This document shows, in pieces, positions 19,085 through 64,000 of a DNA stretch of 64,000 bases (positions within the stretch are counted from its first letter, which is position 1; every line of letters begins with the position of its first letter). Made by a program: the position numbers and the translations under genes. Source of the DNA: Phycisphaerae bacterium (GTDB lineage: Bacteria; Planctomycetota; Phycisphaerae; UBA1845; Fen-1342); the NCBI GenBank assembly GCA_028279405.1, contig JANQNU010000010.1, positions 62,001 to 126,000 on the forward strand. Direction: 5' to 3'. The notes below the pieces were generated by a model that worked only from the letters and a program-made list of their open reading frames with translations, was not told the origin of the DNA and searched no databases.

Positions 19085-19090
19085 GCGTTC

Positions 19091-19909
19091 TTACCCTTCC
19101 GATCCCGCGTCCGATTGATCGCCCGTTGCCGAGGCACCCGTCACCTCGTCCCACGCGATGTGTTCCTCCATGAGGAGCGGAATCAGCTTGTCCAACAATC
19201 GGGGCAGCGCCGCCAGCGACGGCTCGCGACCGGCACCCTCATTCCGCAAATTCGAGAACCGAAACTCCAGCTTTGCAAAGTACGCATAACGCAGCAGCGG
19301 GTTCGCCAGACCGCGACGAACCTCCATACGCGACGTCGCATACTCCCCGTTCACGTGAAACAGATACAGGACCGTCATTGTCCCGCCGCGCGGTGCCGAA
19401 TAATCGGCCACCTTAACCGGAACTTCCGTCCCGTCCGCCAGCTCAACGGACACGGTCTTTGGCGGCCCCAGCGGGGCGTAGCCCGATGCCGCCAGGCACT
19501 CCTCCGGAACGTGCGGCACCACGTCCGGCGAACCCGTGTAGTAGGTGATGACGATGTCCGCGATCCGCACGGGGTCATTCGGAGCAACCGTGTCGTCAAT
19601 CAGACGCCACTGAAGAATCTCGTGGGTCCCGAGCTGAGCGATGACCTCCTTCGAGACCTCCGCCGGCTGCTTCGGGCTCCACCGATAGGCCGGTGCCATG
19701 CGCGTCCAGTCCGCGCGCGCCAGCGACTTCTTCAACGGCACCGGATCCTTCTGGATGTAATAGTCAAATATCGCGAGCACGCCGCGCATGCCGACGATTC
19801 CCGCCACCAGCAGCGCGACGCAGAGCACATAGCGCCCACTGATGATCGACCCGGCCGATGCCCGACGACCGGAGAGACTCACAGACTCGGTCTGGGGGGT
19901 TGTCGCCAT
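19091..19909 (-). CDS. Exosortase-associated EpsI-like protein
   Basis: This 272-residue protein has a membrane helix at about 27-48 and a periplasmic domain of the EpsI/DUF3485 type: near residues 120-150, ITYYTGSPDVVPHVPEECL aligns with the family's HxPExCxxxxGW signature, here with Tyr in place of Trp after the Gly. Such proteins occur beside exosortases in exopolysaccharide loci. It starts eight bases after the exosortase stop and ends six before the TPR gene, so the three are surely one transcript. The biochemical role of EpsI proteins is not established. Confidence 0.9.
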   Translation of the reverse strand: MATTPQTESVSLSGRRASAGSIISGRYVLCVALLVAGIVGMRGVLAIFDYYIQKDPVPLKKSLARADWTRMAPAYRWSPKQPAEVSKEVIAQLGTHEILQWRLIDDTVAPNDPVRIADIVITYYTGSPDVVPHVPEECLAASGYAPLGPPKTVSVELADGTEVPVKVADYSAPRGGTMTVLYLFHVNGEYATSRMEVRRGLANPLLRYAYFAKLEFRFSNLRNEGAGREPSLAALPRLLDKLIPLLMEEHIAWDEVTGASATGDQSDAGSEG

Positions 19910-19917
19910 GCCCGCAC

Positions 19918-20916
19918 CTACTCCCGTCCGCCGGCGGCCTGGGGAACGTCATCCAGGTCGTCCTCTTCCACCGTTACGAAGAGATTCGCCAGGATCCAGC
20001 CGACACCGTTGAACAGACCAAAGGCCAGCAACAGCACGGCGAACCCCAACATCATATGGTAGTTTCCTTCGGCATACTTGGGATCGACGAAGATGTGCAG
20101 CCAGCAGGTGATCACAACGCGGATCATGTTGCAGAACGTAGCAATCGGGATGCACATCAGCACGAGAACCACCCGATGCCAGAGCGGTCGCTCCGCCAGG
20201 AACGCAACCGCAACGCCCAAGGCGCACAACGTAATCGTGCTGCGCATGCCGCTACACGCGTCCGCAACGCCGATCATGCCACTGGTCGAACCATAGCTGT
20301 ACTCGATGATCGAAGAGAACCGCTCGATACTCAAGTCCGGCACGAAGCTCAGCAAGCTTGTGGCCACCCGTGCCGCAAGTTCGCGCAGCGGATTCGTCAA
20401 CGCAAAGTAAATCCCCTTCGGCAACGGGATCGCAAACAGCAGATAGGCGATGGGCAACCAGGCGAAACGCATGACCGGCAACCCGCATAGCAAGATCACC
20501 ACGCCCGCCAGGCACAACAGCATCAAGTAAGGCTGGGCGCGCCCCAACAAAATGACGCCCCACTCGGTCATCGAATAGACATACAGCAGGAAGGAGAGCA
20601 GGATCACCGGCACGCCCACCCAAGTCCCCTCGATCGGGCAGCGCCGAATCTGATCCCACCGCATGTACACCAAGTAGGCGCTGAAGATCGGGATCAACGG
20701 ACCGTGAGACCAGTCCGCACTGCCCGTCCACCCGCGAACCAACGACCCGATTCCCAGGAAGGACTGCACCGAGGCCGGCAAGAACGACAACTCCGGAATG
20801 AACCCGATCTGGTTCCAGAACAAGACGATAAACAGAACCGTGACGATTCCGGCCTTGATCTGCGCAGTGCGATCGAAGCTGATTCGCCAGTTCAGCGATG
20901 CCGCCGCGCGGTCCAT
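19918..20916 (-). CDS. Exosortase, membrane cysteine transpeptidase
   Basis: This 332-residue protein has about eight membrane helices and the exosortase/archaeosortase active site: Cys221 in VADACSGMRS, Arg266 in NMIRVV and His287 in GNYHMML. Exosortases cut PEP-CTERM-type C-terminal anchors and are thought to transfer the proteins to another carrier, in step with exopolysaccharide production. Directly downstream come the EpsI-like and TPR genes. The one clear PEP-CTERM protein in the window (37387-37911) is a plausible substrate, though further genes surely lie elsewhere. The exosortase subtype cannot be decided by eye. Confidence 0.93.
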   Translation of the reverse strand: MDRAAASLNWRISFDRTAQIKAGIVTVLFIVLFWNQIGFIPELSFLPASVQSFLGIGSLVRGWTGSADWSHGPLIPIFSAYLVYMRWDQIRRCPIEGTWVGVPVILLSFLLYVYSMTEWGVILLGRAQPYLMLLCLAGVVILLCGLPVMRFAWLPIAYLLFAIPLPKGIYFALTNPLRELAARVATSLLSFVPDLSIERFSSIIEYSYGSTSGMIGVADACSGMRSTITLCALGVAVAFLAERPLWHRVVLVLMCIPIATFCNMIRVVITCWLHIFVDPKYAEGNYHMMLGFAVLLLAFGLFNGVGWILANLFVTVEEDDLDDVPQAAGGRE

Positions 20917-48290: not shown

Positions 48291-51092
48291 TCACTCTCGG
48301 GAGGCTAGGCAACGATCGTAAAGATGCTGGCATGCAGTGGTCAGACTGTGCTGACGCCCCAGTACACCGAGTCGGATATCGAGGCATTCGCAAAGAACAG
48401 ACGCGCCCTCCTCGAATCGCGCTTGAGCAACAAGAACCTCTCCGAGCACGAACAGCCCATCGGCAAGTCTCGCGTCGTCCTCTGCCAAGAAGCGACGGAG
48501 TATGGAAAGGCCGTGCTGAGCGGCATGCTCGGCATCATCGAGACTCATACGGGCCGCAAGACTCCTTGCCGACCCCAGCAATAGCAGCGCATGCACAACG
48601 TCCACTTCGCGATTTGGAAACAACGAGAACGCCAATTGGTAGTACCGATCGGCATTCGAATAGTCCTCGGCGGCGCAGTAGGCATCTCCAATGAGTACGA
48701 GATGCATCTTGTCCCAATGCACAGGGTTTTCTTTCGCGCGCTGAATCAGTCCACCCATGATGTCAATCGCACCGGAGACATTGCCTTCCGCCGCATACAG
48801 CCTGCAAAGCCTGCGCCGATACTTGTCTGCGCTTCTGCGGAATCGCTCGCTTTCTGTAAAATTCTCCCGAATTCCTAGTGCTTCAAGATAGAGCGCTTCG
48901 CTTTCCTCGACGTTCTCAAGCTTCTGCAGCAGGAAATCGGCAAAGCGATTCAGCGACATCGCCAGATTCGGATGGCGGTTTCCCAAGAATCTCCGTTGCC
49001 ACTCAAGCGACGCTCGGAACATCGTTTCCGCCGCTTCAAATTCACAGCGTGCCTCAAGTAGCTGGGCGTACTCGAATCGGACAAACGCCTCGGCCAGGCT
49101 GTCTTGGCCGAACTGCTGTTGTGCTGCCTGAATTCCCCTGACATAGGCGGTTTCGCCGGCCGAGTACTTTCTCTGACGCTGCAATGCCATGCCCAGGTCC
49201 ATGAAGTACGATGCAGGGACCACCTTCCCGTGCTCCCAAAGAATCGCAATTGCCTCCGAAATCGCCGTTTCGGCGGCGAGGTAAAGATCTTGTGCCCGCA
49301 TGTTCCCCCAGTAAGCGTGGCCGTTGTAGCACGCGTGATTGTAGGCGGCGACGCCCAGGCCATGCAGGCTTCGCGCGACAGCCGGATGACGCACTCCCAA
49401 CTGGCGACGATAGACCTTCAAACTTTCCTGAAACAGAAACGTGGCGCGCATGTAGTCGTACTGTGTATTGGCCAACTCCCCCAAGTCGGACAGGCTCTCA
49501 GCAAATTCGAGGCTGTACTCGCCGAAATGATCGCGGCGAAGATCACATGCTGCTTGCAGCTGGACCTCCGCACTTCGGTACGCACCCTGACCCAAATAGC
49601 TTAGCCCGAGCGTGCGATGAAGGGACGCACGAGTTGCAGGTTGATCAGAGAATTTCGATTCTATCTGGAGTGCTACGTCATCCAGCGTCGTTCGATGCGT
49701 CAGCCCGCTGCCCCTATGCAGCGGGTGCGCCGATTCGAGAATGTGCCTTAGAACATCTCCAACGCGCGTGGCCCTGTCTGCTTCCGCTACTGCCCTTTCG
49801 GTCTCGGAACGGGCTTGCAGAAGCCCAAACACCGCAAGGCCCGCCCCGCTAACCAGCGATAGGAACACCAGGGCCGTTGCCACGACTCCGACCGTGTTTC
49901 GACGAATGAACTTTCCGACGCGATAACGGAGCGTATCCGGCCTCGCGGAAACCGTCTTACCCTCCAAGTGTCGAACGATGTCGTTGGACAGTTGTAGAAC
50001 GGTGGAGTACCGGCGCTGCGGGTCCCTTTGCAATGCAGTTAAGACAATGTTATCGAGATCACCCTGAAGGCGATTCCGCAGTCTCTCAGGGCGCGTCGCC
50101 CATGATGGGAAATCGCCCACCTTGATTGCGGCACTAGGTTTCTGAGGAGTTGCGTCACACACGAGCCGCTCCAACTCCAGGCGTGACAATTGGTGTGTGC
50201 CGTACGGGCTGCGTCCAGTAAGCAACTCGTAAAGAACCACGCCCAGGGAGTAGGAGTCACTTGCTGTCGTGATTGCCTTGCCGGACACCTGCTCGGGGCT
50301 GGCGTATCGCAGGGTCATCATCCTGGAAGTCGAAAACGTCGTTGCGAGCGCCGGCATGTCGTTGCCGTCGAGCAGTTTCGAGATGCCAAAATCGAGCAGT
50401 TTCGGTGTGCCGTCATCGGTCACCAGGATGTTTGCCGGTTTCAGATCACGGTGCACGACGAGGTTATGATGCGCATAGTGTACCGCTGCACACACCTTCA
50501 AGAAGAGCCGCAATCGCTGCCCGACTGACAACTGGTGCTCATCGCAGTACTGGTCGATCGCTCGTCCGTGAACGAACTCCATCACCAAGAACGGCTGACC
50601 ACTTTCGACGGTTCCGCCGTCGATCAATCGAGCAATGTTCGGGTGGTCCAGGTTCGCCAGCGTCTGCCGTTCGCGATGAAATCGCTGGACAATCTGCTCT
50701 GTGTCCATGCCCCGCTTGATCAGCTTCACAGCAACGGTTTGATCGAACTCTCCGTCACCACGCACCGCCCGGTAGACTCGTCCCATGCCTCCAGTGCTGA
50801 TACGCTCAAGCAACCGGTAACGGCCTACCCACTCCGGATCGCCGGATGTTTCTTCTCGCAGTACTGATTTCAGCGATTGCAATTCTATTCCGCGCGGAGG
50901 CTCCAGAAACGAGCCCAGTTCTTGTTCGAATTGAAGGAGCGACTCGACTTCACTCTGAAGAAGCGCATCGCCGTTGCAGACATGTGCCAGAAAGCGCGCT
51001 CGGTCCTTTGGGTCGACCAAGAGGGCATTCTCGCACAAGACCGCGACGCGCCTCCAACGAGCTGAGTCCATCTCCGCCGATTCGGACATCAT
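48291..51092 (-). CDS. Serine/threonine kinase with TPR sensor domain
   Basis: This 933-residue protein starts with a small helical N-domain (about 10-70, with RARFLAHVC and LQSEVESLL) common in planctomycete and acidobacterial kinases. The kinase domain (about 90-355) has STGGMGRVYRA, the AVKLIKRG lysine, HRDLKPANIL and DFGISKLL. One membrane helix (about 400-425, VGVVATALVFLSLVSGAGLAVF) separates it from a C-terminal tetratricopeptide-repeat array (about 470-925), probably extracytoplasmic. The start at 51092 follows the ECF sigma stop by 28 bases and could equally be 51128. The kinase probably controls that sigma factor or an export process. Confidence 0.9.
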   Translation of the reverse strand: MMSESAEMDSARWRRVAVLCENALLVDPKDRARFLAHVCNGDALLQSEVESLLQFEQELGSFLEPPRGIELQSLKSVLREETSGDPEWVGRYRLLERISTGGMGRVYRAVRGDGEFDQTVAVKLIKRGMDTEQIVQRFHRERQTLANLDHPNIARLIDGGTVESGQPFLVMEFVHGRAIDQYCDEHQLSVGQRLRLFLKVCAAVHYAHHNLVVHRDLKPANILVTDDGTPKLLDFGISKLLDGNDMPALATTFSTSRMMTLRYASPEQVSGKAITTASDSYSLGVVLYELLTGRSPYGTHQLSRLELERLVCDATPQKPSAAIKVGDFPSWATRPERLRNRLQGDLDNIVLTALQRDPQRRYSTVLQLSNDIVRHLEGKTVSARPDTLRYRVGKFIRRNTVGVVATALVFLSLVSGAGLAVFGLLQARSETERAVAEADRATRVGDVLRHILESAHPLHRGSGLTHRTTLDDVALQIESKFSDQPATRASLHRTLGLSYLGQGAYRSAEVQLQAACDLRRDHFGEYSLEFAESLSDLGELANTQYDYMRATFLFQESLKVYRRQLGVRHPAVARSLHGLGVAAYNHACYNGHAYWGNMRAQDLYLAAETAISEAIAILWEHGKVVPASYFMDLGMALQRQRKYSAGETAYVRGIQAAQQQFGQDSLAEAFVRFEYAQLLEARCEFEAAETMFRASLEWQRRFLGNRHPNLAMSLNRFADFLLQKLENVEESEALYLEALGIRENFTESERFRRSADKYRRRLCRLYAAEGNVSGAIDIMGGLIQRAKENPVHWDKMHLVLIGDAYCAAEDYSNADRYYQLAFSLFPNREVDVVHALLLLGSARSLAARMSLDDAEHAAQHGLSILRRFLAEDDARLADGLFVLGEVLVAQARFEEGASVLCECLDIRLGVLGRQHSLTTACQHLYDRCLASRE

Positions 51093-51120
51093 ACAACTCT
51101 TCGAGAAAGCCGCGTTTCCT

Positions 51121-51645
51121 TTACGCACGTTCTATTTCACGGAGCAGCCAGAGACGAATCGCGCCCCAACTACGCTCAATCGTACGGCTGGAGACGTCGA
51201 GTACCTTGGCTGTTTCTTCGACGCCTAACCCTGCGAAGAAGCGTAGTTCAACGATTTGGCATTGTTGTGGGTCAACGGAAGCCAACTTCGTGAGTGCTTC
51301 ATCAAGCGCAAGCAGATCGATTGCTTGTACTTCGAAGGCACTCACAACATCATCAAGCCGCAACTTCCGTCGGCCGCCACCGCGTTTCAGTCGTCCACGG
51401 TCTCGCGCATGGTCTACGAGAATCCGCCGCATGACCGTCGCAGCCATACGAAAGAACCGCTCGCGGCTGATCACGTCGTCTCGACTTGCGAGGCGAATGT
51501 AAGCCTCGTGAATCAGTGCCGTGGTCTGAAACATGTGGTCGCTGCGCTCGTTCGCGAGCAAGCGGCTGGCCCTTGTCCGGAGTTCGTCATAGACCTCGGG
51601 GATCAGCTCAGCGACTGACATCGGCTCGTCTTTGGAATCATGCAT
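51121..51645 (-). CDS. ECF sigma factor of the TIGR02999 type
   Basis: This 174-residue sigma-70 protein has region 2 (about 1-80, MSVAELIPEVYDELRTRASRLLAN, HEAYIRL and RRILVDHARDR) and region 4 with PQQCQIVELRFFAGLGVEETAKVLDVSSRTIERSW (about 115-160). Such ECF factors commonly precede TPR serine/threonine kinases, as here. ATG 51645 (MHDSKDEP) is preferred; a longer frame starts at 51744 but is not homologous. The kinase downstream probably regulates it by phosphorylation. Confidence 0.88.
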   Translation of the reverse strand: MHDSKDEPMSVAELIPEVYDELRTRASRLLANERSDHMFQTTALIHEAYIRLASRDDVISRERFFRMAATVMRRILVDHARDRGRLKRGGGRRKLRLDDVVSAFEVQAIDLLALDEALTKLASVDPQQCQIVELRFFAGLGVEETAKVLDVSSRTIERSWGAIRLWLLREIERA

Positions 51646-52064
51646 GTGACAAATTTGCGTCAAACCAAAGAATCTTGTCGGAATCCGGGGCTCGATGTCG
51701 CCCTTTACTGTGGCTGCTCTTCGTTCGCATTCTATGCCGCCCATACAGGGGCTGGCAAACTAGCAATGCGTCACGGTGGATTGCCAGTGATCCGCGCGTG
51801 GATCGGGCCCGGGGCTTGCTCCGCAGGGGTTCCCCATCATGGCCGATGGGCCTTGTGTGGTGGGCGCGGTGATCGGACATTTGTGCGCGGCTTTCGCAGC
51901 GGCGTGTGAATCAGCTTGCAAAGCAGGGTTCACGCCGGAGCGCGGTCGCGCAGTGCAGCCCGTTTGGCAAGTGGGCGCGCCTGTTCACGGTTGCTTCGCC
52001 GACGCTCGTGGCGCCCACAGGCATTCTCTGAGTATCGCGAACCGTCGAAGAAAGGTGCCTAAAC
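51646..52064. other. Intergenic region of the ECF/kinase and DUF1800 genes
   Basis: The two flanking genes are divergent, so their promoters must be here, but no -35/-10 pair stands out by eye. AAAGGTG 16-10 bases before the DUF1800 start is a plausible Shine-Dalgarno site. No open reading frame with homology was found. Confidence 0.55.
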
Positions 52065-53885
52065 ATGCATGCGTCCCCCCAATCGACAGCGTCATGTACC
52101 TCCACGAATGCTGCCGTCCTTCAAGCTCACGACGACAAGGTGTCGCAAACAGCCGGCGCGCCGCAACCCGATAGCGCACCAATCGCAGCCGATCCTGCAC
52201 CTGTCGCGTCCGAATTGCTAACTTCCCGGCGAACGATGCTCGGAACCCTCACGGCAGTGACAGCCGGCGCCCTCCTCGGAAAAAACGCCGTTGCTAGCTG
52301 CGGCACAAGCGTGGTGGCCTCCTGCACGTGCCCTGGTACGCCGGACTACTGGGCCGTCAATCTCGCGAACAAGGCGACGTTTGGGTACACGCCGGAAGTG
52401 CTGGACTGCATCTGCAGTAGCTACAATGGCTGGCTCTACGAGCAGCTCTATTTTCAATCCGACCCCGTGGCATATCAAAACCTGTATGACGCTTGGGAAG
52501 ACTTTGAATGTCAAATGGTCTCTGAATACCCGCTTCTTGCCCAAACGCAGCAGGACTGGTTCATGAACGGCGCAGGAAACTCCAACTACGCAAGGGAACT
52601 CATCGAGGCGCGCATCCGCCGTGCCATTGAGAGCCCCGCGCAGCTATTGGAACGCACAGTCGAGTTTTGGACAGACCACTTCAACGTGCCGCTGAACGGA
52701 ATCGCCCTGAATCCGAGCAAGATCATCGACGACAACATGATCCGCGAAAACGCCCACGGGAGCTTGTCAACTTTGCTTCTCGGCAGCGCGCTCAGTCCCG
52801 CGATGCTCGCATACCTGAATGGAGACAAGAACACCAAAAACAGCGTCAATGAGAACTACGCACGCGAGCTGCTCGAGCTGCACACCCTTGGCGTCAACAA
52901 CGGCTACGACCAGAACACGATCAATCAACTCGCACTGGCCCTTACCGGCTGGTACATTGACTCGTCCAACCATACCCACGAGGTGAAGTTCGACGTCAAC
53001 AGGCACTACAGCGGCTCATCCTTGGTCATAAAGTTCCCGCTCGACCCAAGTGACCCTGATATTTCACATCTCACTCTCAACAGCAACGACGAATACGAGC
53101 TCGATCTCACCAACATCTCGAAGAGCAAGCGCGTTGCCGAGGTGGTTGGCGCGCTCACCGATCCGTCCAAACTTGGCAAGAAGACAGCGAGATATGTCGG
53201 CATGAAGCTTGCCCGGCACTTCCTTGGTTACGATGCCGACACCATTGTGATGCCGTCGCGCGGCCCGATCGACGATGTCATTGTCGACACATATGCGCAA
53301 AGCTCAACGAATAACATCGCCGCAATGCTTGCTGAGATTCTCAGCGAAGAGGCAATGAAACAAGCAACACCGAAACTCAAGCGGCCGCTTCACTTGCTTG
53401 CATCCACGTGCCGAGCGTTCAATCCGTGGATGCCTATTTACTACTTTAATGGACAGATTGCCGGTTCAAGCACGCCAAGCCAAATCAATACGTACTTTCT
53501 TTCCCCGGCCGGCCACTCCCCGTTTGGTTGGCCGGCGCCAAACGGCTATCCCGACACCGCCGAGTTCTGGTCTGCCCTTTTTCACCGCTGGTCTTTTGGA
53601 GCGCGAATCAGCTCGAGCCAATTGACGATTGGCAGTGTCCTGGGTCGATACGGCCACGTGAAGATCGACGTATCCGCGGCAGATTCAACGTCAACGCCTC
53701 AAGACACCTTCGACTACTTCGAGCGCTTGATGCTCGCCGGCGGATTCACGCAAGACGAAAGGGAAACGATTGTCGACTATATCGCCGAACTGAATGCCGA
53801 TCCGAGCAATTGCTACAGCGACGAATACAAGAAGCGAATGATGCTCGGCCTCATGATCGGTGCTCCGAGTTTCCAGTGGTATTAG
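52065..53885 (+). CDS. DUF1800-family exported protein
   Basis: This 606-residue protein has a twin-arginine signal (SRRTMLGTL, near 55-85, followed by a hydrophobic AVTAGALLG stretch) and a DUF1800-type body with KATFGYTPEVL, FWTDHFNV, NEXYARELLELHTLGV-like and YDQNTINQLALALTGW stretches. The DUF1800 family is of unknown function and very commonly encoded next to DUF1501, as here. Signal and context imply a periplasmic or outer-surface location. The GC content appears lower than in the 10-47 kb region. Confidence 0.85.
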   Translation: MHASPQSTASCTSTNAAVLQAHDDKVSQTAGAPQPDSAPIAADPAPVASELLTSRRTMLGTLTAVTAGALLGKNAVASCGTSVVASCTCPGTPDYWAVNLANKATFGYTPEVLDCICSSYNGWLYEQLYFQSDPVAYQNLYDAWEDFECQMVSEYPLLAQTQQDWFMNGAGNSNYARELIEARIRRAIESPAQLLERTVEFWTDHFNVPLNGIALNPSKIIDDNMIRENAHGSLSTLLLGSALSPAMLAYLNGDKNTKNSVNENYARELLELHTLGVNNGYDQNTINQLALALTGWYIDSSNHTHEVKFDVNRHYSGSSLVIKFPLDPSDPDISHLTLNSNDEYELDLTNISKSKRVAEVVGALTDPSKLGKKTARYVGMKLARHFLGYDADTIVMPSRGPIDDVIVDTYAQSSTNNIAAMLAEILSEEAMKQATPKLKRPLHLLASTCRAFNPWMPIYYFNGQIAGSSTPSQINTYFLSPAGHSPFGWPAPNGYPDTAEFWSALFHRWSFGARISSSQLTIGSVLGRYGHVKIDVSAADSTSTPQDTFDYFERLMLAGGFTQDERETIVDYIAELNADPSNCYSDEYKKRMMLGLMIGAPSFQWY

Positions 53886-53951
53886 GCGAATCTTGCGAAC
53901 ATTCCGTTGAGGCAATGTAGCGTTTCCTGAAGCAACAAGTAGAGGTGCGCC

Positions 53952-55439
53952 ATGGCAAACTATGACAAGAATGCATGCGACGACTATAACTACACGATCA
54001 ATCGCCGACAGCTCATGGGCGCGTCAGCGGCCACGCTTGCGGCCTCGGCCGCGGGCGTCGCTTTGCTGGGTGGCGTCGCCAAGAAAGCGGCGGGAAAAAC
54101 GCTGGGCGACTGCCCGCCGTTGCCCACTTCGGGCAACCACGTCTTCATTTTCTTACACTTGGCGGGGGGCGCCGACACACTCGGCATGATCACACCTCCG
54201 CTGGGACCGGGTACGACGTATGATGCGCTGCGCGGCGGCACGGCCGTGGAATTGACAAGTGCGGAGACAATGCCACTTCATTCTGGGTCCAATGACTATT
54301 TCCGATATGTCTCAGAATTGGACGTCATGATCAATGGCAACAGTTCGCTCGATGGTATCTGGAGCGATGGAAAACTGGTGATCTCGCCTGCGACTTCGTT
54401 GCCAAATCAGTCATATTCCCATTTTCAGGCAACTGATTGGTTAAGCCGTATGCTCGAAGGTGATTGCGGCGACCAATACGACGGCTTCCTCGCGAGATTC
54501 CTGAATACGACTTCCGGAACGACGAACGGCCGACTGCGCGGCTTGAGCATCAGCCCGGGCATTCTGGGTCCGCTGGCCAACAGTGATCCGTCAAACATCC
54601 GAGACACGCTCGCGATCAATGATCTTTGCACGTCGGGCATTGGTGGGCTGTTCGATCGCACCGTTAGCTGTCTCCTCAACAGTGAGCCAGAACGTCGCGA
54701 GAAGCTTCTCCAAATGTATGATGCCCAGCTTTCCTACGACGCTTGGCCTGGAATTGCGCTGGCAACGGCCTGTTCCGTGGACACACTTCAGAATGCTGTT
54801 GATTGCAGCCAGCCAATTCCGGCAGGGTACGATCCCACGCACCCGCTCGACGTCAAGTTGATGAACCTCGCGAGACTATTGAAATCCAACTCCGGCAATG
54901 GCATTGGTGTACAAGTTGTGGCCTTGGAATACGGCGGTTGGGATACGCACAACAATCAAAAGTCGCGCATGCTCGGTGCGAACGGTCTCGTAGCGAACCT
55001 CGCCCGCGCACTAACGTCCTTCTACAATGACATGAAAGACTGCCCCGTCGATTTCACGCTCGCCTCCGTGACCGAGTTCGGGCGCAATCTCGATCCCGGC
55101 GGATCGACCGGGACCGAGCATGGCCACGGAGGACCCGCGTTCATCTTTGGCTCAAACATCAACGGCGGTCCGTTGGCGCTAACGCAATTCGGCAACATTC
55201 CCGGAGTCGCCGGACCCTGGGGTGTGAGCGGTTACGACGCGCTGGATCACCTGCACGACGTCCAGTCCACCGAATGCACCGGCAGTCGCGACATCTGTGG
55301 CCTGGTCGATCCGCGCGATCTCCTTGTTGAGATATTTGATGAAAACATGAATGCCAACGTCACACAATTGTTCGAACCGGCCCCCACCCAATGCGCGTAC
55401 GAGGTCAGCTCGGCGACGAACTATGGGCTCATCATTTAA
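53952..55439 (+). CDS. DUF1501-family exported protein
   Basis: This 495-residue protein begins with INRRQLMGASAATLAASAAGVALLGG, a twin-arginine signal, and continues as DUF1501 (VFIFLHLAGGADTLGM, then VVALEYGGWDTHNNQ and FTLASVTEFGRNLDP), a sulfatase-like or phosphatase-like fold. It begins 66 bases after the DUF1800 gene with AGAGGTG upstream and probably shares its transcript. The pair is widespread but uncharacterised; a role in modifying or anchoring surface molecules is speculation. Confidence 0.85.
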   Translation: MANYDKNACDDYNYTINRRQLMGASAATLAASAAGVALLGGVAKKAAGKTLGDCPPLPTSGNHVFIFLHLAGGADTLGMITPPLGPGTTYDALRGGTAVELTSAETMPLHSGSNDYFRYVSELDVMINGNSSLDGIWSDGKLVISPATSLPNQSYSHFQATDWLSRMLEGDCGDQYDGFLARFLNTTSGTTNGRLRGLSISPGILGPLANSDPSNIRDTLAINDLCTSGIGGLFDRTVSCLLNSEPERREKLLQMYDAQLSYDAWPGIALATACSVDTLQNAVDCSQPIPAGYDPTHPLDVKLMNLARLLKSNSGNGIGVQVVALEYGGWDTHNNQKSRMLGANGLVANLARALTSFYNDMKDCPVDFTLASVTEFGRNLDPGGSTGTEHGHGGPAFIFGSNINGGPLALTQFGNIPGVAGPWGVSGYDALDHLHDVQSTECTGSRDICGLVDPRDLLVEIFDENMNANVTQLFEPAPTQCAYEVSSATNYGLII

Positions 55440-56125: not shown

Positions 56126-59065
56126 ATGGATCGATTGGACGACGTCTTAGCCAAGCTCAAGAAACAGAGCTGGACGAACTACTCTGGGTTCGACGGCATC
56201 GCCAAGTACGTGCGGAATGGAGATGACGCCACGCTGCGCGCCCTTCCGGCGCCCGGTCAATACTCGTACTGGACTGCTGACCTGACACGTGCATTGTCCG
56301 ATCCGGACAAGTGGACCGAACAGGATGCGCGATTGGCCCAGATCCTGTTCAAACTAGGGGCGGAGTATCCGCTTTGGGAGTGGCTTGGCCGGTTCCTGAG
56401 CCGTGAACCCCAAGGTGGAGAGTTCTTCGACAAGATTGCCGGCTCATGTAAGGGCTGGTCGGCGAGCAAGGTAGCTGCGAGTGCGATTGGCCACTTGCAC
56501 CAGTTCGTTTCGGACAACGGCCCCACGTCGCTCGGACGGTATCTCCTCGCGTTGAGTGCGAAGGATCTTGCTCGAGCGGTCAAAGGCGCCCGGTTCACCA
56601 ACTCTGCTCCTGAGTTCGTTGAACTGTTCCTGGATCACGCGCCCGACCGGTTGGATGCGGTCCTACCCTTGGTTCTGGATCGTCTTCGATGGAGATCCGG
56701 ACAAGCGGAAGTGCTCGCTGTTCTGCTACAAAAGAACGGCGTTCGCTACGAGAAATTCGTTTCGAAGCGGATCCAGAAAGAGAAGGACATCTGGGCCAAG
56801 TTTCGTGCAATGCAGGTACTCCACGCCTTTGCCCCGGATCGACACAGGACCGCTGCGCTCGCGGTATCGCGTGAAGCACTGTCGAGCAATCCATCGAAGG
56901 TTAATCAGAATCAGGTGGCCGAGTGGATGGCTGACAAGCTCGGCGAGGACGTCGTGCAAGATCTGACTGGCTTTGCTCGGAAGGCTACGTCGGACGGGCT
57001 CGTAGCCGGAATGGCACAGGTCGCTGAGTCGCGGCTGGGAGACCACGCCGTGCCGATTCTCGAAGCCCTGTTGACTAATGCGCATGCCGATGTTCGGGCC
57101 GTGGGGGTCGAGTCTCTGATTCGACGCGGAGACGCCAGGCACGAGACTCCCATTGAAGCGGAACTAAGAGAGGGACTTGGAGAAAAAGATGCCGGGCAGG
57201 TGCTCAGCGCCCTCGCGTTGGCGAGCAAGTGGAAGCCGGCCAAGCTGCTGGACGTACTATGGGGATTGCTTGAGCACCAGTCCAAATCAGTTCGGCAGGC
57301 AACCGGGCGTGTCCTTGCAAGTCTCGGCGAAAGCACTGTCGATGAACTGGCGACCCGGCTAACGCATAAGAAGGCGGATGTCCGTCTGGCTGCCGCCGAG
57401 GCACTTGCTGCTGCTGGGTCAGGGGCGGCATTGGCTGCACTTGAGGACCGGCTTGATAAGGAACCCAACGAAGACGTGCGCGATCAAATGCTCTTCGGTC
57501 TCGAGACCGCCTGGGCGAAGCAAGGACGCGAAGTCTCAAAGGCGGACATCGCCGCTCGGATGAAACGCATCAGTGGCAAACTTGAACAGCCAGTTGCGGA
57601 CTGGCTCCCGGAGCAGACTCTGCCTGCGTTGAAATGGACGGACGGAGAGCGACTTTCGATTCGCGACATCCGTTACATGCTCTATCGCCAGTCGCGAGCC
57701 AAGGAGACAAGACCTGATCCGGAAGCCGCGGCCGTCTATCGATTGCTTGATCGCTCGAACGCGGGGCCCTTCGCCGCCGCCGTTCTAACTGCGTTCTTAA
57801 AGAGCAAGCAGGACGCTTCAGACCACTGGGCGTTGTCGATCGCAGGCGTGCTCGGAGACGACTCATTGGTCCCCGCCCTCGCGCCGCAGGTCAGAACCTG
57901 GGTAGAGAATAGTCGAGGGAAGATGGCCGAGCGGGCCGTCCAAGCCTTGGCATTGCTTGGGACAGACAGCGCGCTACTGGCAGTGGATGCCTTCGCGATC
58001 CGGTATCGCTCCAAGATGAAGAACGTCGGGCGGGCGGCCGCGGAGTCGTTCGCCCAAGCAGCCGAACGAATGGGGATTACTCCGGACGAACTCGGTGACC
58101 GGGTAGTGCCCTGGCTTTGTTTCTCCCCGGACAAACCTCGTCACATCGATGCCGGACAAGCTCAGTACGAGGTTCGGATCGGACCCGACTTCAAATTGCG
58201 ATACCACGACGCCAAGAAGGGCAAGACCGCAAAGAGCCTGCCAAAAAGTGCATCCATTGAAGTAAGAGCAGCGATGAAGGAAGTCGCGGCCACTCTCCGC
58301 GAGGTGATCAAGGCACAAACGCTGCGGCTGGAGAACCTGCTCGTTCGGCAACGGCGTTGGCCACTGAAGCGGTGGCGTGAGTTGTTCCTGCAGCACCCTG
58401 TTCTGTTACCGTTTGCCACGCGCCTCATTTGGGGTGTCTACGACAACGAGGACAAACCGGCAGGGCTGTTCCGGGCCCTGGAGGATCGAACACTCACAAC
58501 GAGTACTGATGACGCATACAACGCACCCGAGGACTCGGACATCGGGCTCGTGCATCCGTTGGAAATCGACGATGCGGCGCGGTCAGAGTGGCTGACTCAC
58601 CTGGCTGACTACGAAATCGAGCCACCATTCCCTCAGTTCGACAGAGAAGTGGTTCTCATCTCAGATGACCAGCACGATCAAAAGAGCTACGTCGCTCTTG
58701 ATGGCACGTCGCTTAATGGCATGACGTTCAAGGGACGTGCCGAGCGGCTCGGTTGGGTGCGGGGCTCTGTAGTAGATGCAGGCGGGGTAAGCAGCTACCA
58801 CAAGAGCTTCCCGGCGGCGAATGTGGACGTCCTGATCGGGATAGAGGGAATGTTCATGGGGATGGACATGTACGACGAAATCACACTCGGTCCGGTCTAT
58901 TTTGTCCGAGATGGAGAAGTGACGTACGGTAGCTACGAATATGACGAGCCGGGCGACGAGACCGATGGCCGAGTCCTGCGCTTCGGAGATGTCCCTGCAA
59001 TTGCCTTCTCTGAGGCCATGGGGGACCTGCGACGCATCGCCGGCGACAAATCGGACGAAGCCTAG
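56126..59065 (+). CDS. DUF4132 (MolR/YehI-like) HEAT-repeat protein
   Basis: This 979-residue protein begins at ATG 56126 with AGGAG ten bases upstream. Residues 180-500 resemble HEAT-like helical repeats (KKADVRLAAAEALAAAGSGA, SVRQATGRVLASLG). The C-terminal half has the DUF4132 pattern WPLKRWRELFLQHPVL and FATRLIWGVYD (about 750-780). E. coli YehI (once called MolR) belongs to this family. No membrane helix or signal is seen, so it is cytoplasmic. It is convergent with the SWIM gene, with 15 bases between the stops, and likely acts with that gene's cluster. Confidence 0.85.
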   Translation: MDRLDDVLAKLKKQSWTNYSGFDGIAKYVRNGDDATLRALPAPGQYSYWTADLTRALSDPDKWTEQDARLAQILFKLGAEYPLWEWLGRFLSREPQGGEFFDKIAGSCKGWSASKVAASAIGHLHQFVSDNGPTSLGRYLLALSAKDLARAVKGARFTNSAPEFVELFLDHAPDRLDAVLPLVLDRLRWRSGQAEVLAVLLQKNGVRYEKFVSKRIQKEKDIWAKFRAMQVLHAFAPDRHRTAALAVSREALSSNPSKVNQNQVAEWMADKLGEDVVQDLTGFARKATSDGLVAGMAQVAESRLGDHAVPILEALLTNAHADVRAVGVESLIRRGDARHETPIEAELREGLGEKDAGQVLSALALASKWKPAKLLDVLWGLLEHQSKSVRQATGRVLASLGESTVDELATRLTHKKADVRLAAAEALAAAGSGAALAALEDRLDKEPNEDVRDQMLFGLETAWAKQGREVSKADIAARMKRISGKLEQPVADWLPEQTLPALKWTDGERLSIRDIRYMLYRQSRAKETRPDPEAAAVYRLLDRSNAGPFAAAVLTAFLKSKQDASDHWALSIAGVLGDDSLVPALAPQVRTWVENSRGKMAERAVQALALLGTDSALLAVDAFAIRYRSKMKNVGRAAAESFAQAAERMGITPDELGDRVVPWLCFSPDKPRHIDAGQAQYEVRIGPDFKLRYHDAKKGKTAKSLPKSASIEVRAAMKEVAATLREVIKAQTLRLENLLVRQRRWPLKRWRELFLQHPVLLPFATRLIWGVYDNEDKPAGLFRALEDRTLTTSTDDAYNAPEDSDIGLVHPLEIDDAARSEWLTHLADYEIEPPFPQFDREVVLISDDQHDQKSYVALDGTSLNGMTFKGRAERLGWVRGSVVDAGGVSSYHKSFPAANVDVLIGIEGMFMGMDMYDEITLGPVYFVRDGEVTYGSYEYDEPGDETDGRVLRFGDVPAIAFSEAMGDLRRIAGDKSDEA

Positions 59066-59080
59066 TGCGGCTCTCCTGAT

Positions 59081-61117
59081 TCATGCGTACTGCTGGCTCC
59101 AGATTGCCGTGACCTCTTTATGGAGCGCCAATCGGAGCACATAGCTCGATTCGAGCAGGCACCCTGGCGCGTCGGAGCGATCACTTCCGCGGCGAAGATG
59201 TTCGAGTGCTTCAATCGTCCGCCGAACGGCGTCCCGGCAAGTAACGAGACTCAACATATCAAAGGCATCGCCCGTGGCGTGCAAGGGGGCAAGGTCGCGA
59301 TGCACGCGCAGACCAGCCGCGGCAACATCTTCGAGCTGGTCCAGGGCCGTCCTGAGCATCATTCCGACACTCGACCCGGGTATGTCCGTACTATCGAATT
59401 CATGCTCGGATGGGACTTCGATGGCCTCTCCAGCAGCCGAGCTGGCCTGCGATGGCGCAGTAGCCGATAATCCGTCTCCGTCGAGGGTTGTATGGACGAG
59501 TCGCCCTCCCGCGACGAGCGTGATTGGCTCAAGGTACACGCCATCCGGACCGGCGCGCAGTTGACCGAAAACGGCCTCCAGTCGCCGCACGGATTCAACA
59601 TGCTCCACGGCGCGCGGCATGTTCTCATCGAACACCACGCGCAATGGCAGAACGCAACCATCCGTGTCAATCAGCTCCCGGTGCAAGACCTGATCGACCT
59701 CATCGTACGTCGCGTCGCCCAGGTTCGCAGGCGCCAGGAACACAAGGTTCTCATTCTCCGTCTGATCGGTAAGCCCACCGCCGAAGGCCCGTTCCACCTT
59801 TGAGCGCAGATCACGCCACGACTTCACGCTGGGTACATGCGCGAGATTGGTGTCACCCATCCGAACGGCACGAGGTCCCTGACGCCCGGATAGCCTGCCC
59901 ACCGGGTTGCGAAAGACACCGGCGACTCGGTAACGGGAGCGGCTCGCCTCACGCGGATCGCGTACACCTGACCATGGAAACTCCTGTGTGTAGCGGACCC
60001 GCGGATCAAACGGCTGGCCCAAGGGACGCGTATCCGTCCAGGTGTTCCAGCACTGGGAACCAACCTCCCAAAAGTAGACGGTTAGACCCTCAAAACCGCT
60101 TTGCGTCCGCCACCGACGCGCCCCGATCCCAATCAACTCCAGTTCGCCGACAGCCTGCTCATACTTCGAACGGTGCACGCCAACAAGTGCGGGCACAGGC
60201 TGCACCAGCGCCACCGCAAGGGCCCAAGCCAGTCCGGCCGCGCGCAATACGCGCGCCGAATCGCCGTGGGCGTCGCGTGTGAGCAGCAACCCTGTTTCGG
60301 TCGCGAGGACATTCAGTACGCGTTCCAGACGCGGAAGATCAACACCATGCGCGGACACCGCCAGAGTCTTCAGGCGATCTCGCGTGGCATCGGACACACG
60401 CTCAATGCCGATCATGACCATTTCGCTCAGTATCTGACGTACCGATGTCAGCACTTCATCACGTGTCCGCGGAGACCCGGAGGAGGCCTCCAGGGCACCC
60501 TTGGCCGACTGCGGAAGTGGACGCCCCTGACGCGACCAGAACGCCAGCACTGCGGTCACTTTGTGCTTGCAGGGGCCCGACGCGTGGCAGGTACACAGCA
60601 TGCCGTCCAATCCCCGGGCCGCGAGCCACCGGACGGTGGCGTTCTGGAACGGGAGCGTGATGATGATCGTCGCATCAACGTCGCATTGGGCGTCGCCGTG
60701 AGGGGTTCCCACAGCTTGGCGGAAGAGCGCCTTGCCGGCCCACTTCTCAAGCGCCTCCGGCGTGACCGCCATGATCTCGCCTACGGGATCGACATCCGTT
60801 TGAGTGGTCGAATCAACATCGGCAGGCGGCAGCTTGTCGCGCAGATACAACAGGACGGTGAGCACGTGGCGACAGACGGCGCTCGCCCCGCAGTCGCATC
60901 TCGCGGCTGTTGGTACCGCCCCTAGCCGCACCACTTGTCCCTCAACGTCGAACGTCAGTTGGTCCCCTTCAGAACCGATGTGCCGGGGAGCGGATCGCTG
61001 AACGTCCTTGTGTGCACGGCGAACGAGACCCTTGTTGGCCAGGGCAGCCAACGCGTCATCGTCAAGAACGGCGAGTTGCCGCGCAAGCACACCTAGCTCA
61101 GGGCTTTCGCCAGCCAC
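59081..61117 (-). CDS. SWIM zinc-finger protein (YehQ-like)
   Basis: This 678-residue protein from GTG 61117 (AGAGG eight bases upstream; 61090 or 61171 are alternatives) carries two SWIM-type zinc sites: RCDCGASAVCRH and, about 100 residues later, CTCHASGPCKHK, with the CxC-n-CxH spacing. SWIM domains bind zinc and act in protein or nucleic-acid contacts. The rest (about 190-650) has alpha/beta alternation without recognisable enzymatic motif. Its order matches the E. coli yehQ-type partner of the VWA protein encoded upstream, with which it overlaps by 25 bases. Confidence 0.85.
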   Translation of the reverse strand: MAGESPELGVLARQLAVLDDDALAALANKGLVRRAHKDVQRSAPRHIGSEGDQLTFDVEGQVVRLGAVPTAARCDCGASAVCRHVLTVLLYLRDKLPPADVDSTTQTDVDPVGEIMAVTPEALEKWAGKALFRQAVGTPHGDAQCDVDATIIITLPFQNATVRWLAARGLDGMLCTCHASGPCKHKVTAVLAFWSRQGRPLPQSAKGALEASSGSPRTRDEVLTSVRQILSEMVMIGIERVSDATRDRLKTLAVSAHGVDLPRLERVLNVLATETGLLLTRDAHGDSARVLRAAGLAWALAVALVQPVPALVGVHRSKYEQAVGELELIGIGARRWRTQSGFEGLTVYFWEVGSQCWNTWTDTRPLGQPFDPRVRYTQEFPWSGVRDPREASRSRYRVAGVFRNPVGRLSGRQGPRAVRMGDTNLAHVPSVKSWRDLRSKVERAFGGGLTDQTENENLVFLAPANLGDATYDEVDQVLHRELIDTDGCVLPLRVVFDENMPRAVEHVESVRRLEAVFGQLRAGPDGVYLEPITLVAGGRLVHTTLDGDGLSATAPSQASSAAGEAIEVPSEHEFDSTDIPGSSVGMMLRTALDQLEDVAAAGLRVHRDLAPLHATGDAFDMLSLVTCRDAVRRTIEALEHLRRGSDRSDAPGCLLESSYVLRLALHKEVTAIWSQQYA

Positions 61118-62235
61118 TCGGCTAACCTCTGCGGAGTCAGTGCTGCAACTTCGGCGCCCATGTCCACGCATTGCGCTGCGAGCGCGTGGTCGTAGACCGG
61201 CTCCGCGGTCGCGTCGAGCGCCGCGAGGCCGAGCACGCGCGTGCCCGATTCACGCAATCTCTTGATCGCTCCTAACATTCGATTCGTCGGTGCGCCTTCG
61301 TAGAAGTCCGTGACGAACACGACAACGGTGCGCGTTGGATGCCGCACCAGTGATTCGCAGTAAGCCAGTGCGCGTCCGATGTCGGTTCCGCCTCCGAGCT
61401 GAACACTCATCAGCACCTCGACCGGATCACTGGCCGCCTCCGTCAAATCGACAATCTCCGTGTCGAATGCGACCAGGCTGACGCGCATCGCCGGCAGGCC
61501 CTTGAATATGCCCGCCATGACCGCCGCGTGAATAACGGAGTCCATCATCGACCCACTGCAATCAACGGCCATGATGATGTGCCACTTGATATGGTGCTGG
61601 ATGCGCGAGTTAAAGAACAACGCGCTGAGTACCAGTCGTTTGTGCTCCCGGTCGAAGTGCTTCAGATTCGCCCGAATCGTGCGGCGAACATCGAGATTCT
61701 TCGCCACCTTGAGCAGGCTGCGCCGTTGCCGGTTCAACCGTCCCCAGAGTGCCTGCCGAACGTCCTTTGCCAGCTTGCGGGTCAGCTCATCGACAATCTG
61801 CCGCACGATGCGCCGTGCCGATTCGAGCACGTCACTGTTCATCATGCCGCGATAGGTCAGGACCGCCTTGAGCAATTCGTAGCTTGGCTCGAGCTTGTCG
61901 AGCACTTCGCGATCCGTCACCAGTTCGGTCATGCCATAGCGATCCAGGGCGTGTCGTTCGACGACTTCCACAGTCTCTCGCGGAAACAGATCGCGCACTT
62001 CCGCAAGCCAGTCTGGCAGAACGAGGGCGCTTGGATCAAGACTGCCCTGGCGACCCGCCCCCGGCCGCACGCCGCGAGCAGCGTATTCACGCCCATAGAG
62101 GTACTCGAGCACGCGGTCCATCCGGGCGTACTCTGCCCTCTCAGCGCCGCCCAGCTTCTTCTCAGCGAAACGGCCAAGAACCAGCCGCCACCGCTGCATC
62201 GCCAGCTTGTCTTGAGGTGTCGGCGCTGCGCTCAT
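61093..62235 (-). CDS. VWA-domain protein (YehP-like)
   Basis: This 380-residue protein has a helical N-terminal half and a von Willebrand factor A-type domain from about 215 with the MIDAS signature DCSGSMMDS and, further on, GGGTDIGRAL and VTDFYEG. It resembles CoxE and the MoxR-linked VWA proteins that work with AAA+ chaperones of the MoxR type. Its ATG overlaps the stop of the upstream DUF5682 gene as ATGA and its end overlaps the SWIM gene, so the three are translated together. No signal peptide. Confidence 0.9.
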   Translation of the reverse strand: MSAAPTPQDKLAMQRWRLVLGRFAEKKLGGAERAEYARMDRVLEYLYGREYAARGVRPGAGRQGSLDPSALVLPDWLAEVRDLFPRETVEVVERHALDRYGMTELVTDREVLDKLEPSYELLKAVLTYRGMMNSDVLESARRIVRQIVDELTRKLAKDVRQALWGRLNRQRRSLLKVAKNLDVRRTIRANLKHFDREHKRLVLSALFFNSRIQHHIKWHIIMAVDCSGSMMDSVIHAAVMAGIFKGLPAMRVSLVAFDTEIVDLTEAASDPVEVLMSVQLGGGTDIGRALAYCESLVRHPTRTVVVFVTDFYEGAPTNRMLGAIKRLRESGTRVLGLAALDATAEPVYDHALAAQCVDMGAEVAALTPQRLAEWLAKALS

Positions 62236-64000
62236 GAGATTCTTCCTTCCGGTGCAAACGCGCCCAAGCCATCGCGTTCGAGAGTGCGTTTCAGACGCGC
62301 CTCGATGTCGATGCCCAGCAGGAAGTCTTGCTCGGAAAACTGCTCCGTCATGGGAATGCGTTCGGGCTCGACACCAACAAGCCCTGCTACCGTGGTGGAG
62401 AGTTCATTGCACTCGCGAGGAGTGAGCTCGGCAAACGCCAGACGCAGATCGGGAATCTGTCGAAGGAACTGTGCTTCCGGCCATGACTCCAGGACCTCGT
62501 GAATCGCAGCCGTGGCTTCCGGCAGCTGCCAGAGAACACTCCGGGCTGTCCGCATCAGTCCCCGCAAGAATGCCGGGCCATCGGATGTGTGTGCGCCGAG
62601 CATGTGGCCACGCAGGCTTCGCACGACATCTGAAGCTGGAAGTTCGCCATCGCCATACAATGACCCGGCAGCCGCCCCGCGCATAGCGGCGTTACCTCCG
62701 GTACTGTCCAGGACCTCACGTAGCGCGCCGTGCCGAAGCTCGCGACGCTCATCTGTATCGCCAATGGTTGTGGCCGATTGGGTGAGGGCATTGAGCGCGT
62801 TGAGTACAGTCTCAGTTTGCGCTGCTGGAGTGGCGGTGAGCTGCGGCAGGACGTAGACAGCTCTCTGGTACGCTTGATTCGCCAGTGCGTCTACGCCGGT
62901 GAGATGGTTGGCCTCCAGTGGTTCGCGCGAGACGTGCAACGCAAGCAGCGTTTCAATCGCGGCAACCAGCGAGACAAAGTCGGCATCCTCAGCTACAAGG
63001 GCCTGAGTTCGCTCGAACAAATCCTGAGTGTGTCGATGAAGGCCCATACGGCAAGCCTCGAGCAGCAACGATGTGGCCACATCGGCGCGCCGCCCCTGAC
63101 CCTGTGCTTCGGCTTGCGCAAATCGTTCCTGAAGCAGCGCGGTGGCCGCCTCCTCGAGGCTGGCACCGTAAACACTTCGCTCAATCAAGGTTGATTCAGC
63201 TGCCGGCGACCAATGATACCGCCATACTTCCTGGATGCGTTCCAAGTCCTTTCCATGGACGTAGTCTGGGCCGCGAACCAGATCGGCGAACGGTATCTCA
63301 AGGAAACGGAGTCGATAGAAAAACCTCGATAGCGCACGATGTCGCGTCTTGCGATAAAGGTCCAGGATTGATTCTCGTGCCGTAATCACCTCAAGATCGA
63401 TTCTGAGACGGTGCGCGGTGGCTCGAAAATCCTCGACGATCGGCGGCTGGCCGGCGTCAGCGGGGACGTCGCCAACCGTATCGCCCGCCAGAAGTTGCCG
63501 GGCGAGTGCAAGGACCAGGACGCCTTCAACGTCGACCGAACCCTTCACGAAGCACGAGCGTACCGCGTCAAGGGCGTCTTCGCGCGCTGGTCGTGTGTGA
63601 CCCCGTAGCTGAGCGAGTCGGCGGCAATGCTCCAGTGCCCCAATCTCATCAGCCACGGATATCTCGATCCGTCGCTCGCGACACCTTCGTCCGAGCTTGA
63701 CGAATATGTCGGCCAGATCTTCCTTGTCCCATGCTCGCTGATAAAAACCTGGCGAGGGCATTCCAGACGCGTACCCGTTCAAGCGATCAAGTTGTTCGAA
63801 ACCGTATCGCATTAAGACAACGAGGGCATCCTGCTCAGCAACGTGCACCTCCGGCGCGACGAGCGGATCAGTGGCGGGCAAAACGACCGTGTGAAATCCA
63901 CCGGTCACGACAACGACTCGCTTACCGGCCTCCTGCTGCACAGCCGCAGCCATGGCCCGTTCTCGCGCAAGTGTTCCATCGACTCTGAGCGCGTCGGAGG
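62232..64000 (-). CDS. DUF5682-like protein (YehM-like), partial
   Basis: The reading frame is open to the right edge, so the start lies outside the window; the ATG at 63953 is not necessarily the real one. The roughly 589 visible residues begin with RERAMAAAVQQEAGKRVVVVTGGFHT, a strand-turn resembling TraB/PrgY-like or erythromycin-esterase-type folds, and carry a long helical remainder with no catalytic motif I recognise. It resembles DUF5682, which is encoded with MoxR AAA+, VWA and SWIM genes. The AAA+ gene should lie just beyond 64000. Confidence 0.78.
   Translation of the reverse strand, partial: SDALRVDGTLARERAMAAAVQQEAGKRVVVVTGGFHTVVLPATDPLVAPEVHVAEQDALVVLMRYGFEQLDRLNGYASGMPSPGFYQRAWDKEDLADIFVKLGRRCRERRIEISVADEIGALEHCRRLAQLRGHTRPAREDALDAVRSCFVKGSVDVEGVLVLALARQLLAGDTVGDVPADAGQPPIVEDFRATAHRLRIDLEVITARESILDLYRKTRHRALSRFFYRLRFLEIPFADLVRGPDYVHGKDLERIQEVWRYHWSPAAESTLIERSVYGASLEEAATALLQERFAQAEAQGQGRRADVATSLLLEACRMGLHRHTQDLFERTQALVAEDADFVSLVAAIETLLALHVSREPLEANHLTGVDALANQAYQRAVYVLPQLTATPAAQTETVLNALNALTQSATTIGDTDERRELRHGALREVLDSTGGNAAMRGAAAGSLYGDGELPASDVVRSLRGHMLGAHTSDGPAFLRGLMRTARSVLWQLPEATAAIHEVLESWPEAQFLRQIPDLRLAFAELTPRECNELSTTVAGLVGVEPERIPMTEQFSEQDFLLGIDIEARLKRTLERDGLGAFAPEGRIS

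What the first reader, a model, noticed from the sequence alone, without database searches (positions are those of the whole stretch)
56126..64000. DUF4132-SWIM-VWA-DUF5682 cluster resembling the E. coli yehI-L-M-P-Q group
Four families with no settled function occur together: DUF4132, double SWIM, VWA with MIDAS, and DUF5682. The last three are translationally coupled: ATGA overlap between DUF5682 and VWA, and a 25-base overlap between VWA and SWIM. This set is found as yehI/M/P/Q in E. coli and in many other genomes with a MoxR AAA+ ATPase, but its purpose is not established. Inference: a chaperone/co-factor-loading or conflict-type machine. The prediction is testable because the AAA+ partner should sit just right of 64000.
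Basis: partly seen in the sequence, partly recalled or inferred. Interest (0 to 1): 0.78.

Follow-up and report, generated by a model that had tools for sequence, protein, structure and literature searches.

The report
YehL-type AAA+ gene cluster
This is a conserved bacterial gene cluster, also part of the E. coli core genome as yehL-M-P-Q with yehI, that encodes an ATP-driven protein machine of unknown job; sequence profiles now suggest that one part (DUF5682) is a hydrolase of the Tiki/ChaN/TraB superfamily.

Summary
Confirmed. The four genes are real, and the predicted AAA+ gene exists: past 64000, DUF5682 is complete (806 aa) and shares one base with a MoxR AAA+ ATPase 51% identical to E. 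coli YehL. The order AAA+, DUF5682, VWA, SWIM equals E. coli yehL-M-P-Q; DUF4132 (YehI) lies convergent at the far end. A remnant of a second DUF4132 gene lies just upstream of the AAA+ gene, where E. coli has yehI. In 63 sufficiently long loci from about ten phyla, DUF5682 is present in 63, VWA in 61, SWIM in 61, DUF4132 in 50; nothing else recurs. DUF5682 and VWA are fused in 9. New here: the DUF5682 N-terminal domain matches the Tiki superfamily (ChaN, TraB), with invariant His, Glu, Arg and His; a sister variant carries HEAT protein DUF5691 instead of DUF4132; DUF4132-family genes are under DNA-damage repressors in E. coli and Deinococcus (literature). Best reading: a MoxR/VWA motor that remodels or gates a Tiki-type hydrolase, with SWIM and HEAT subunits choosing the target, perhaps in genotoxic stress. 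Identity is shown; mechanism is inferred. A new member of a known, functionally unassigned kind (YehL subfamily).

The parts
56126..59065 (+). DUF4132 protein (YehI relative): N-terminal HEAT repeats, C-terminal DUF4132 domain (residues 725-903 of the 1005-aa ORF from GTG 56048); convergent to the operon
   Evidence: Pfam PF13569 1.2e-39, HEAT_2 8.8e-15; 31% to YehI over 370 aa; domain model pLDDT 93.2, pTM 0.87, no PDB match at E<=0.001
59081..61117 (-). SWIM zinc-finger protein (YehQ relative), two CxC..CxH motifs (C92 C94 C100 H102, numbering from ATG 61171; second motif further on); GTG start at 61117 overlaps VWA by 25 nt
   Evidence: SWIM1 ligands invariant in 37 homologs, SWIM2 not universal; weak BLAST match to YehQ over the first 190 aa, 2e-12
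61093..62235 (-). VWA protein (YehP relative), CoxE-type VWA with full MIDAS (D225, S227, S229, T284, D310)
   Evidence: PF05762 3.1e-53; 47% to YehP; MIDAS conservation
62232..64000 (-). DUF5682 protein (YehM relative), cut by the window end; whole gene L002:7233-9653 (-), 806 aa: N-terminal Tiki-superfamily domain (residues ~30-300) plus C-terminal helical solenoid. Beyond the window follow the MoxR AAA+ gene (L002:9653-10810, -, YehL relative, 385 aa, overlapping the DUF5682 start by one base) and a remnant of a second DUF4132 gene (L002 ~10814-10942, -)
   Evidence: PF18934 2.9e-106; 29% to YehM; profile match to ChaN and TraB; model pLDDT 89.7, pTM 0.85; AAA+; remnant:

Best explanation
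The locus encodes a YehL-subfamily MoxR AAA+ machine. Shown here: five gene families in one conserved cluster, with the same order as E. coli yehL-M-P-Q plus yehI. Inferred: the AAA+ (L) forms a ring and the VWA protein (P) docks on it, as NorD docks on NorQ; ATP hydrolysis moves P and the attached DUF5682 protein (M, fused to P in some lineages). M carries a Tiki/ChaN/TraB-type domain with conserved His44, Glu68, Arg230 and His254, so the motor probably gates or feeds a hydrolase (protein or ester bond cleavage). SWIM (Q) and the HEAT-repeat protein (I: DUF4132 type, or DUF5691 type in the sister variant) select the target or anchor the complex, possibly on nucleic acid. It most likely serves a stress, perhaps DNA-damage, function rather than loading a cofactor into a dedicated enzyme.
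For: Orthology and order. Cluster conservation: 63/63 M, 61/63 P, 61/63 Q, 50/63 I, and nothing else recurs. M-P fusion in 9 of those loci and in phylum loci L010, L017, L018. Sister variant SWIM-DUF5691-AAA-DUF5682-VWA in the window's phylum and in Deinococcus, and a SWIM-HEAT fusion. Tiki domain: hhalign 91.8% to ChaN (E 9e-8) and 91.3% to TraB; two subsets alone give 64-91%; reversed, VWA, AAA and C-terminal controls all at or below 0.41%; single-sequence Pfam hits to ChaN, TraB and DUF5694. H44, E68, R230, H254 identical in 59 of 59. Co-occurrence of DUF5682 and DUF4132 in 195 phylum genomes: 9 seen, 1.8 expected, p 4e-6. MoxR-VWA mechanism: NorQD (PMC13036017). DNA damage: E. coli molR (yehF-yehH, beside yehI) listed as LexA-regulated (PMC11039860), yehF raised about 1 log2 unit in SOS (PMC11002266); D. 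radiodurans DRA0166 (DUF4132) and DR2173 (WGR) are under DdrO/IrrE control and rise on mitomycin C (PMC8533742).
Against: No biochemical data. The first Glu of the Tiki 2His/2Glu set is V/I in DUF5682 (the TraB rows collected here also have T rather than E there). Foldseek with the whole DUF5682 model returned only solenoids and no Tiki structure. The DNA-damage link concerns DUF4132/WGR relatives, not the L-M-P-Q operon itself, and LexA-like boxes in the E. coli region are at chance level. Some loci lack DUF4132.
Confidence: 0.45

Rival explanations
1. Cofactor- or metal-insertion chaperone in the manner of NorQD, CoxDE or CbbQO: AAA+ and VWA remodel a client enzyme so that a metal centre can be inserted; the other subunits are adaptors.
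For: The AAA+ and VWA parts belong to the families that do this (PMC13036017, PMC3893208). The old name MolR ties a DUF4132-family gene to molybdate use (cited in PMC8533742).
Against: Known metal-insertion pairs usually sit with their client (established knowledge); here 97 adjacent ORFs show no recurrent enzyme. In D. radiodurans molybdate genes did not change together with the DUF4132 genes.
Confidence: 0.2
2. Biological-conflict (immune or programmed-death) system, related in logic to the vWA-MoxR-VMAP ternary systems, in which the Tiki hydrolase is the effector.
For: Patchy distribution (22 of 195 phylum genomes), YehL spread across phyla (own phylum needs at least 4 changes on the tree; E. 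coli YehL groups with Myxococcota and the window's phylum), a candidate effector enzyme domain, relics and duplications of DUF4132.
Against: Core and mostly single-copy in E. coli; no PADLOC match of the five proteins, none recurrent among neighbours except AriA twice; one phage record of 50,697; parts vary little in architecture; no SWIM or YehL in the VMAP paper.
Confidence: 0.2
3. The Tiki-like domain of DUF5682 is not catalytic (ChaN-like ligand or haem binding, or purely structural), and the machine only remodels protein complexes.
For: ChaN itself is a haem-binding member (Pfam name); V or I replaces the first Glu of the 2His/2Glu motif.
Against: H44, E68, R230 and H254 are identical in 59 of 59 homologs across phyla, as expected of an active site.
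Confidence: 0.15

Closest known systems
E. coli yehI-yehK-yehL-yehM-yehP-yehQ (YehL subfamily of MoxR AAA+ ATPases)
   Same: Same families, same L-M-P-Q order, overlapping genes; 51, 29 and 47% identity for L, M and P
   Different: DUF4132 gene convergent downstream instead of upstream; only a remnant upstream; no yehK; SWIM protein diverged
SWIM-DUF5691-AAA-DUF5682-VWA operon (Deinococcus taeanensis plasmid; several genomes of the window's phylum)
   Same: SWIM, HEAT protein, AAA+, DUF5682, VWA all present
   Different: Order Q-I'-L-M-P; the HEAT protein is DUF5691 without a DUF4132 domain
NorQ-NorD, RavA-ViaA, CbbQ-CbbO
   Same: MoxR AAA+ with a VWA partner
   Different: Other MoxR subfamilies; no SWIM, DUF5682 or DUF4132 partner known to me; clients known or proposed
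vWA-MoxR-VMAP ternary conflict systems
   Same: MoxR and VWA core
   Different: No VMAP part or recognisable effector-associated domain in the five proteins; bpMoxR hit below cut-off (21.6 against 27 bits)
Tiki superfamily (ChaN, TraB/GumN, EreA/B)
   Same: N-terminal domain of DUF5682 by profile comparison, with His, Glu, Arg and GxxH conserved
   Different: Fused to a large helical solenoid; first Glu replaced by V/I; sits in an AAA+ operon

Membership tests
YehL-type MoxR operon | MoxR AAA+ most similar to YehL, with intact Walker A/B, sensor 1 and arginines | tested here: met
   51% to YehL; invariant G104, P106-K110, E177-E178, N224, R239-R240
YehL-type MoxR operon | Adjacent DUF5682, VWA and SWIM genes in the order L-M-P-Q | tested here: met
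YehL-type MoxR operon | DUF4132 (YehI) neighbour | tested here: met
   present but convergent; upstream remnant
Tiki superfamily (for DUF5682 N-domain) | Profile similarity to known members above controls | tested here: met
   91.8 and 91.3% against at most 0.41% for controls
Tiki superfamily (for DUF5682 N-domain) | 2His/2Glu catalytic set plus a basic residue (PMC6254334) | tested here: inconclusive
   H44, E68, H254 and R230 invariant; first Glu is V/I
Tiki superfamily (for DUF5682 N-domain) | Parallel beta-sheet core flanked by helices, shown by structure match | tested here: inconclusive
   alternating strand/helix order in the model, but Foldseek of the whole chain found only solenoids; the domain was not folded alone
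vWA-MoxR-VMAP conflict systems | VMAP protein and effector domains in the locus | tested here: not met
   none among the Pfam hits of the five proteins
NorQD-type metal insertion | Client metalloenzyme in the neighbourhood | tested here: not met
   no recurrent enzyme next to the cluster
NorQD-type metal insertion | AAA+ ring binds the VWA protein and remodels it | not testable with these tools
   needs biochemistry

The most novel reading that the evidence does not exclude
A widespread, previously unassigned class of AAA+ machine in which a MoxR-VWA motor drives or gates a Tiki-fold hydrolase (DUF5682), targeted by SWIM and HEAT/DUF4132 subunits and deployed under DNA damage in bacteria as different as E. 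coli and Deinococcus.
Probability: 0.25. Interest if true: 0.8.

Novelty: new member of a known kind. Interest (0 to 1): 0.52.

Why it matters
YehL is one of only two MoxR ATPases of E. coli K-12 (PMC3893208) and its operon is in about 95% of complete E. coli genomes, yet its function is unassigned in the papers found. A predicted hydrolase domain with named residues, a conserved five-part composition, a second natural variant and a DNA-damage lead turn 'four DUFs in a row' into a set of direct experiments in a laboratory E. coli strain.

Tried and rejected
Defence system by PADLOC: none of the five proteins matches (a REase_II hit at 0.04 is noise). Recurrent neighbours as client or effector: none beyond the five families; WGR twice. 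PDB sequence search with the DUF5682 profile: only designed helical proteins. Foldseek of the whole DUF5682 model: weak solenoid matches, the Tiki part swamped. Foldseek of the DUF4132 domain: no match at E<=0.001, despite a confident model. LexA-like boxes in the E. coli region: 10 found, 8.6 expected. VMAP membership: not supported. Literature: none of the listed papers names DUF5682 or DUF5691. The Tiki test was checked with reversed and unrelated profiles.

Full report
Observation. The window is contig C69:62001-126000 of a 5.6-Mb, 92-contig genome. Pfam confirms DUF4132 with HEAT repeats, a marginal SWIM, a CoxE-type VWA and DUF5682. SWIM is marginal in Pfam, but two CxC..CxH motifs are visible; the first is invariant in 37 homologs, the second is not universal. 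The stated overlaps are right: 4 nt for DUF5682/VWA, 25 nt for VWA/SWIM with a GTG start at 61117. A start codon at exactly this 25-nt overlap is found in 23 of 66 loci, a 4-nt one in 26 (all in-frame start codons near the stop were counted, so a locus may count in both).

Reading on past 64000 (L002), DUF5682 is complete at 806 aa, and an AAA+ gene of 385 aa ends one base into its start codon. It is AAA_5 at 1.2e-33 and 51% identical to YehL of E. coli. VWA is 47% identical to YehP, DUF5682 29% to YehM over its length, SWIM is related to the first part of YehQ and DUF4132 to the C-terminal part of YehI. E. coli has yehI-K-L-M-P-Q in this order. The window differs in that its DUF4132 gene lies convergent at the far end. 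Directly upstream of the AAA+ gene is a remnant of another DUF4132 C-terminus, 59% identical over 41 residues to the gene that holds this place in Sphingomonas (L062), which also has a convergent second DUF4132 gene. So the window's locus looks like the Sphingomonas arrangement with the upstream copy decayed (inference).

How general it is. A scan of one genome per species with a YehL alignment gave 80 loci, chosen by similarity to the window's AAA+ and therefore biased. Of 63 with at least 6.5 kb downstream of the AAA+ gene, DUF5682 is in 63, VWA in 61, SWIM in 61, DUF4132 in 50 (26 upstream, 21 downstream, 3 with a copy on the other strand); DUF5682 and VWA form one reading frame in 9. No other gene family recurs widely, and a Pfam scan of 97 adjacent ORFs finds at most two of anything. 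In Actinobacteria and a few others some loci have a stand-alone DUF4132 and a giant protein of about 1780 aa without Pfam domains. Within the window's phylum DUF5682 is in 22 of 195 genomes, DUF4132 in 16, both in 9 against 1.8 expected, p 4e-6. A divergent clade has SWIM, a HEAT protein (DUF5691 or unnamed), AAA+, DUF5682, VWA instead, and one genome fuses SWIM to HEAT. Deinococcus taeanensis has the same SWIM-DUF5691-AAA-DUF5682-VWA operon. The constant set is thus SWIM, a HEAT protein, MoxR, DUF5682 and VWA; the DUF4132 domain is an optional end of the HEAT protein (inference from these loci). A tree of 99 YehL sequences (quick search) needs at least 4 changes for the window's phylum and puts E. 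coli YehL with Myxococcota and members of the window's phylum, away from Proteus and Gilliamella: transfer between phyla is likely. The nearest named relative of the window's AAA+ is Aquisphaera (Planctomycetota), so the organism is probably a planctomycete, but this was not proved. Within E. coli the operon is core (5181 of 5426 genomes with at least 80% of it). It is dispensable: the reduced strain DGF-298 lacks it (PMC10652928), and Shigella sonnei lineages lost yehL and yehM (PMC12795559).

What DUF5682 is. The N-terminal third reads xRHHSP, LIEGP, RExxM, GGFH. Single sequences give weak hits to ChaN, TraB/PrgY/GumN and DUF5694. An alignment of 59 homologs against profiles of ChaN (30 sequences) and TraB (8), both collected here, gives hhalign probabilities of 91.8 and 91.3%, above ChaN against TraB (80.8%); unrelated profiles, reversed profiles and the C-terminal part give at most 0.41%, and each half of the alignment alone gives 64-91%. 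H44, E68, R230 and H254 are identical in all 59. In the superfamily two His, two Glu and a basic residue matter (PMC6254334); here the first Glu is V or I. The rest of the protein is a helical solenoid. The fold was not confirmed by a structure match, because the only Foldseek search used the whole chain. DUF4132 gives a confident model without a PDB relative.

Function. MoxR ATPases work with VWA partners; in NorQD a finger of the VWA protein enters the AAA+ pore and a linker is twisted (PMC13036017). The YehL subfamily is recognised but not studied in the papers found (PMC3893208). DUF4132/WGR relatives are under DNA-damage control in two unrelated regulons: molR, listed as LexA-regulated in E. 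coli (PMC11039860; that it corresponds to yehF-yehH beside yehI is my own knowledge together with the map), and DRA0166/DR2173 under DdrO in D. radiodurans (PMC8533742). Hence the proposal: motor (L), VWA coupler (P), hydrolase plus scaffold (M), zinc-finger and HEAT/DUF4132 targeting subunits (Q, I), used under stress. Shown: composition, order, conservation, domain relationship. Inferred: complex, catalysis, target, stress.

Verdict. The locus is a new member of a known but functionally unassigned kind. The additions are the Tiki assignment of DUF5682, the DUF5691 variant, the fusions, the DUF4132 remnant and the DNA-damage lead.

Noticed in passing
L002:11292-11762 (-), just right of the window beyond the AAA+ gene: A PAAR-motif protein gene (PF05488, 1.7e-23); its expected C-terminal end seems to continue in another frame, so it may be frameshifted; it sits beside the DUF4132 remnant.
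   Followed up: partly
window 48291-51744 and L002:12696-16321, 17797-19998: Paired ECF sigma factor and Ser/Thr kinase-TPR genes on both sides of the cluster, plus a third kinase-TPR gene.
   Followed up: no
window 52065-55439: DUF1800 and DUF1501 gene pair (PF08811 4e-75, PF07394 3e-13) next to the cluster.
   Followed up: no
L099:4614-9944, L092:3128-8482 and 9 similar loci: Giant proteins of about 1680-2070 aa without Pfam domains (two scanned) directly upstream of the AAA+ gene in Actinobacteria and some Planctomycetota, some next to a stand-alone DUF4132 gene.
   Followed up: partly
L003:9531-10685 and the tree: E. coli YehL is closer to Myxococcota and to members of the window's phylum than to Proteus, Providencia or Gilliamella YehL.
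   Followed up: yes
L156:7959-10799: SWIM and HEAT repeats in one 946-aa protein downstream of AAA+, DUF5682, VWA.
   Followed up: partly
MT835988.1 (phages collection), 12858-13925: The only phage-collection record with a YehL relative, a 14-kb unannotated faecal contig; may be bacterial DNA.
   Followed up: no
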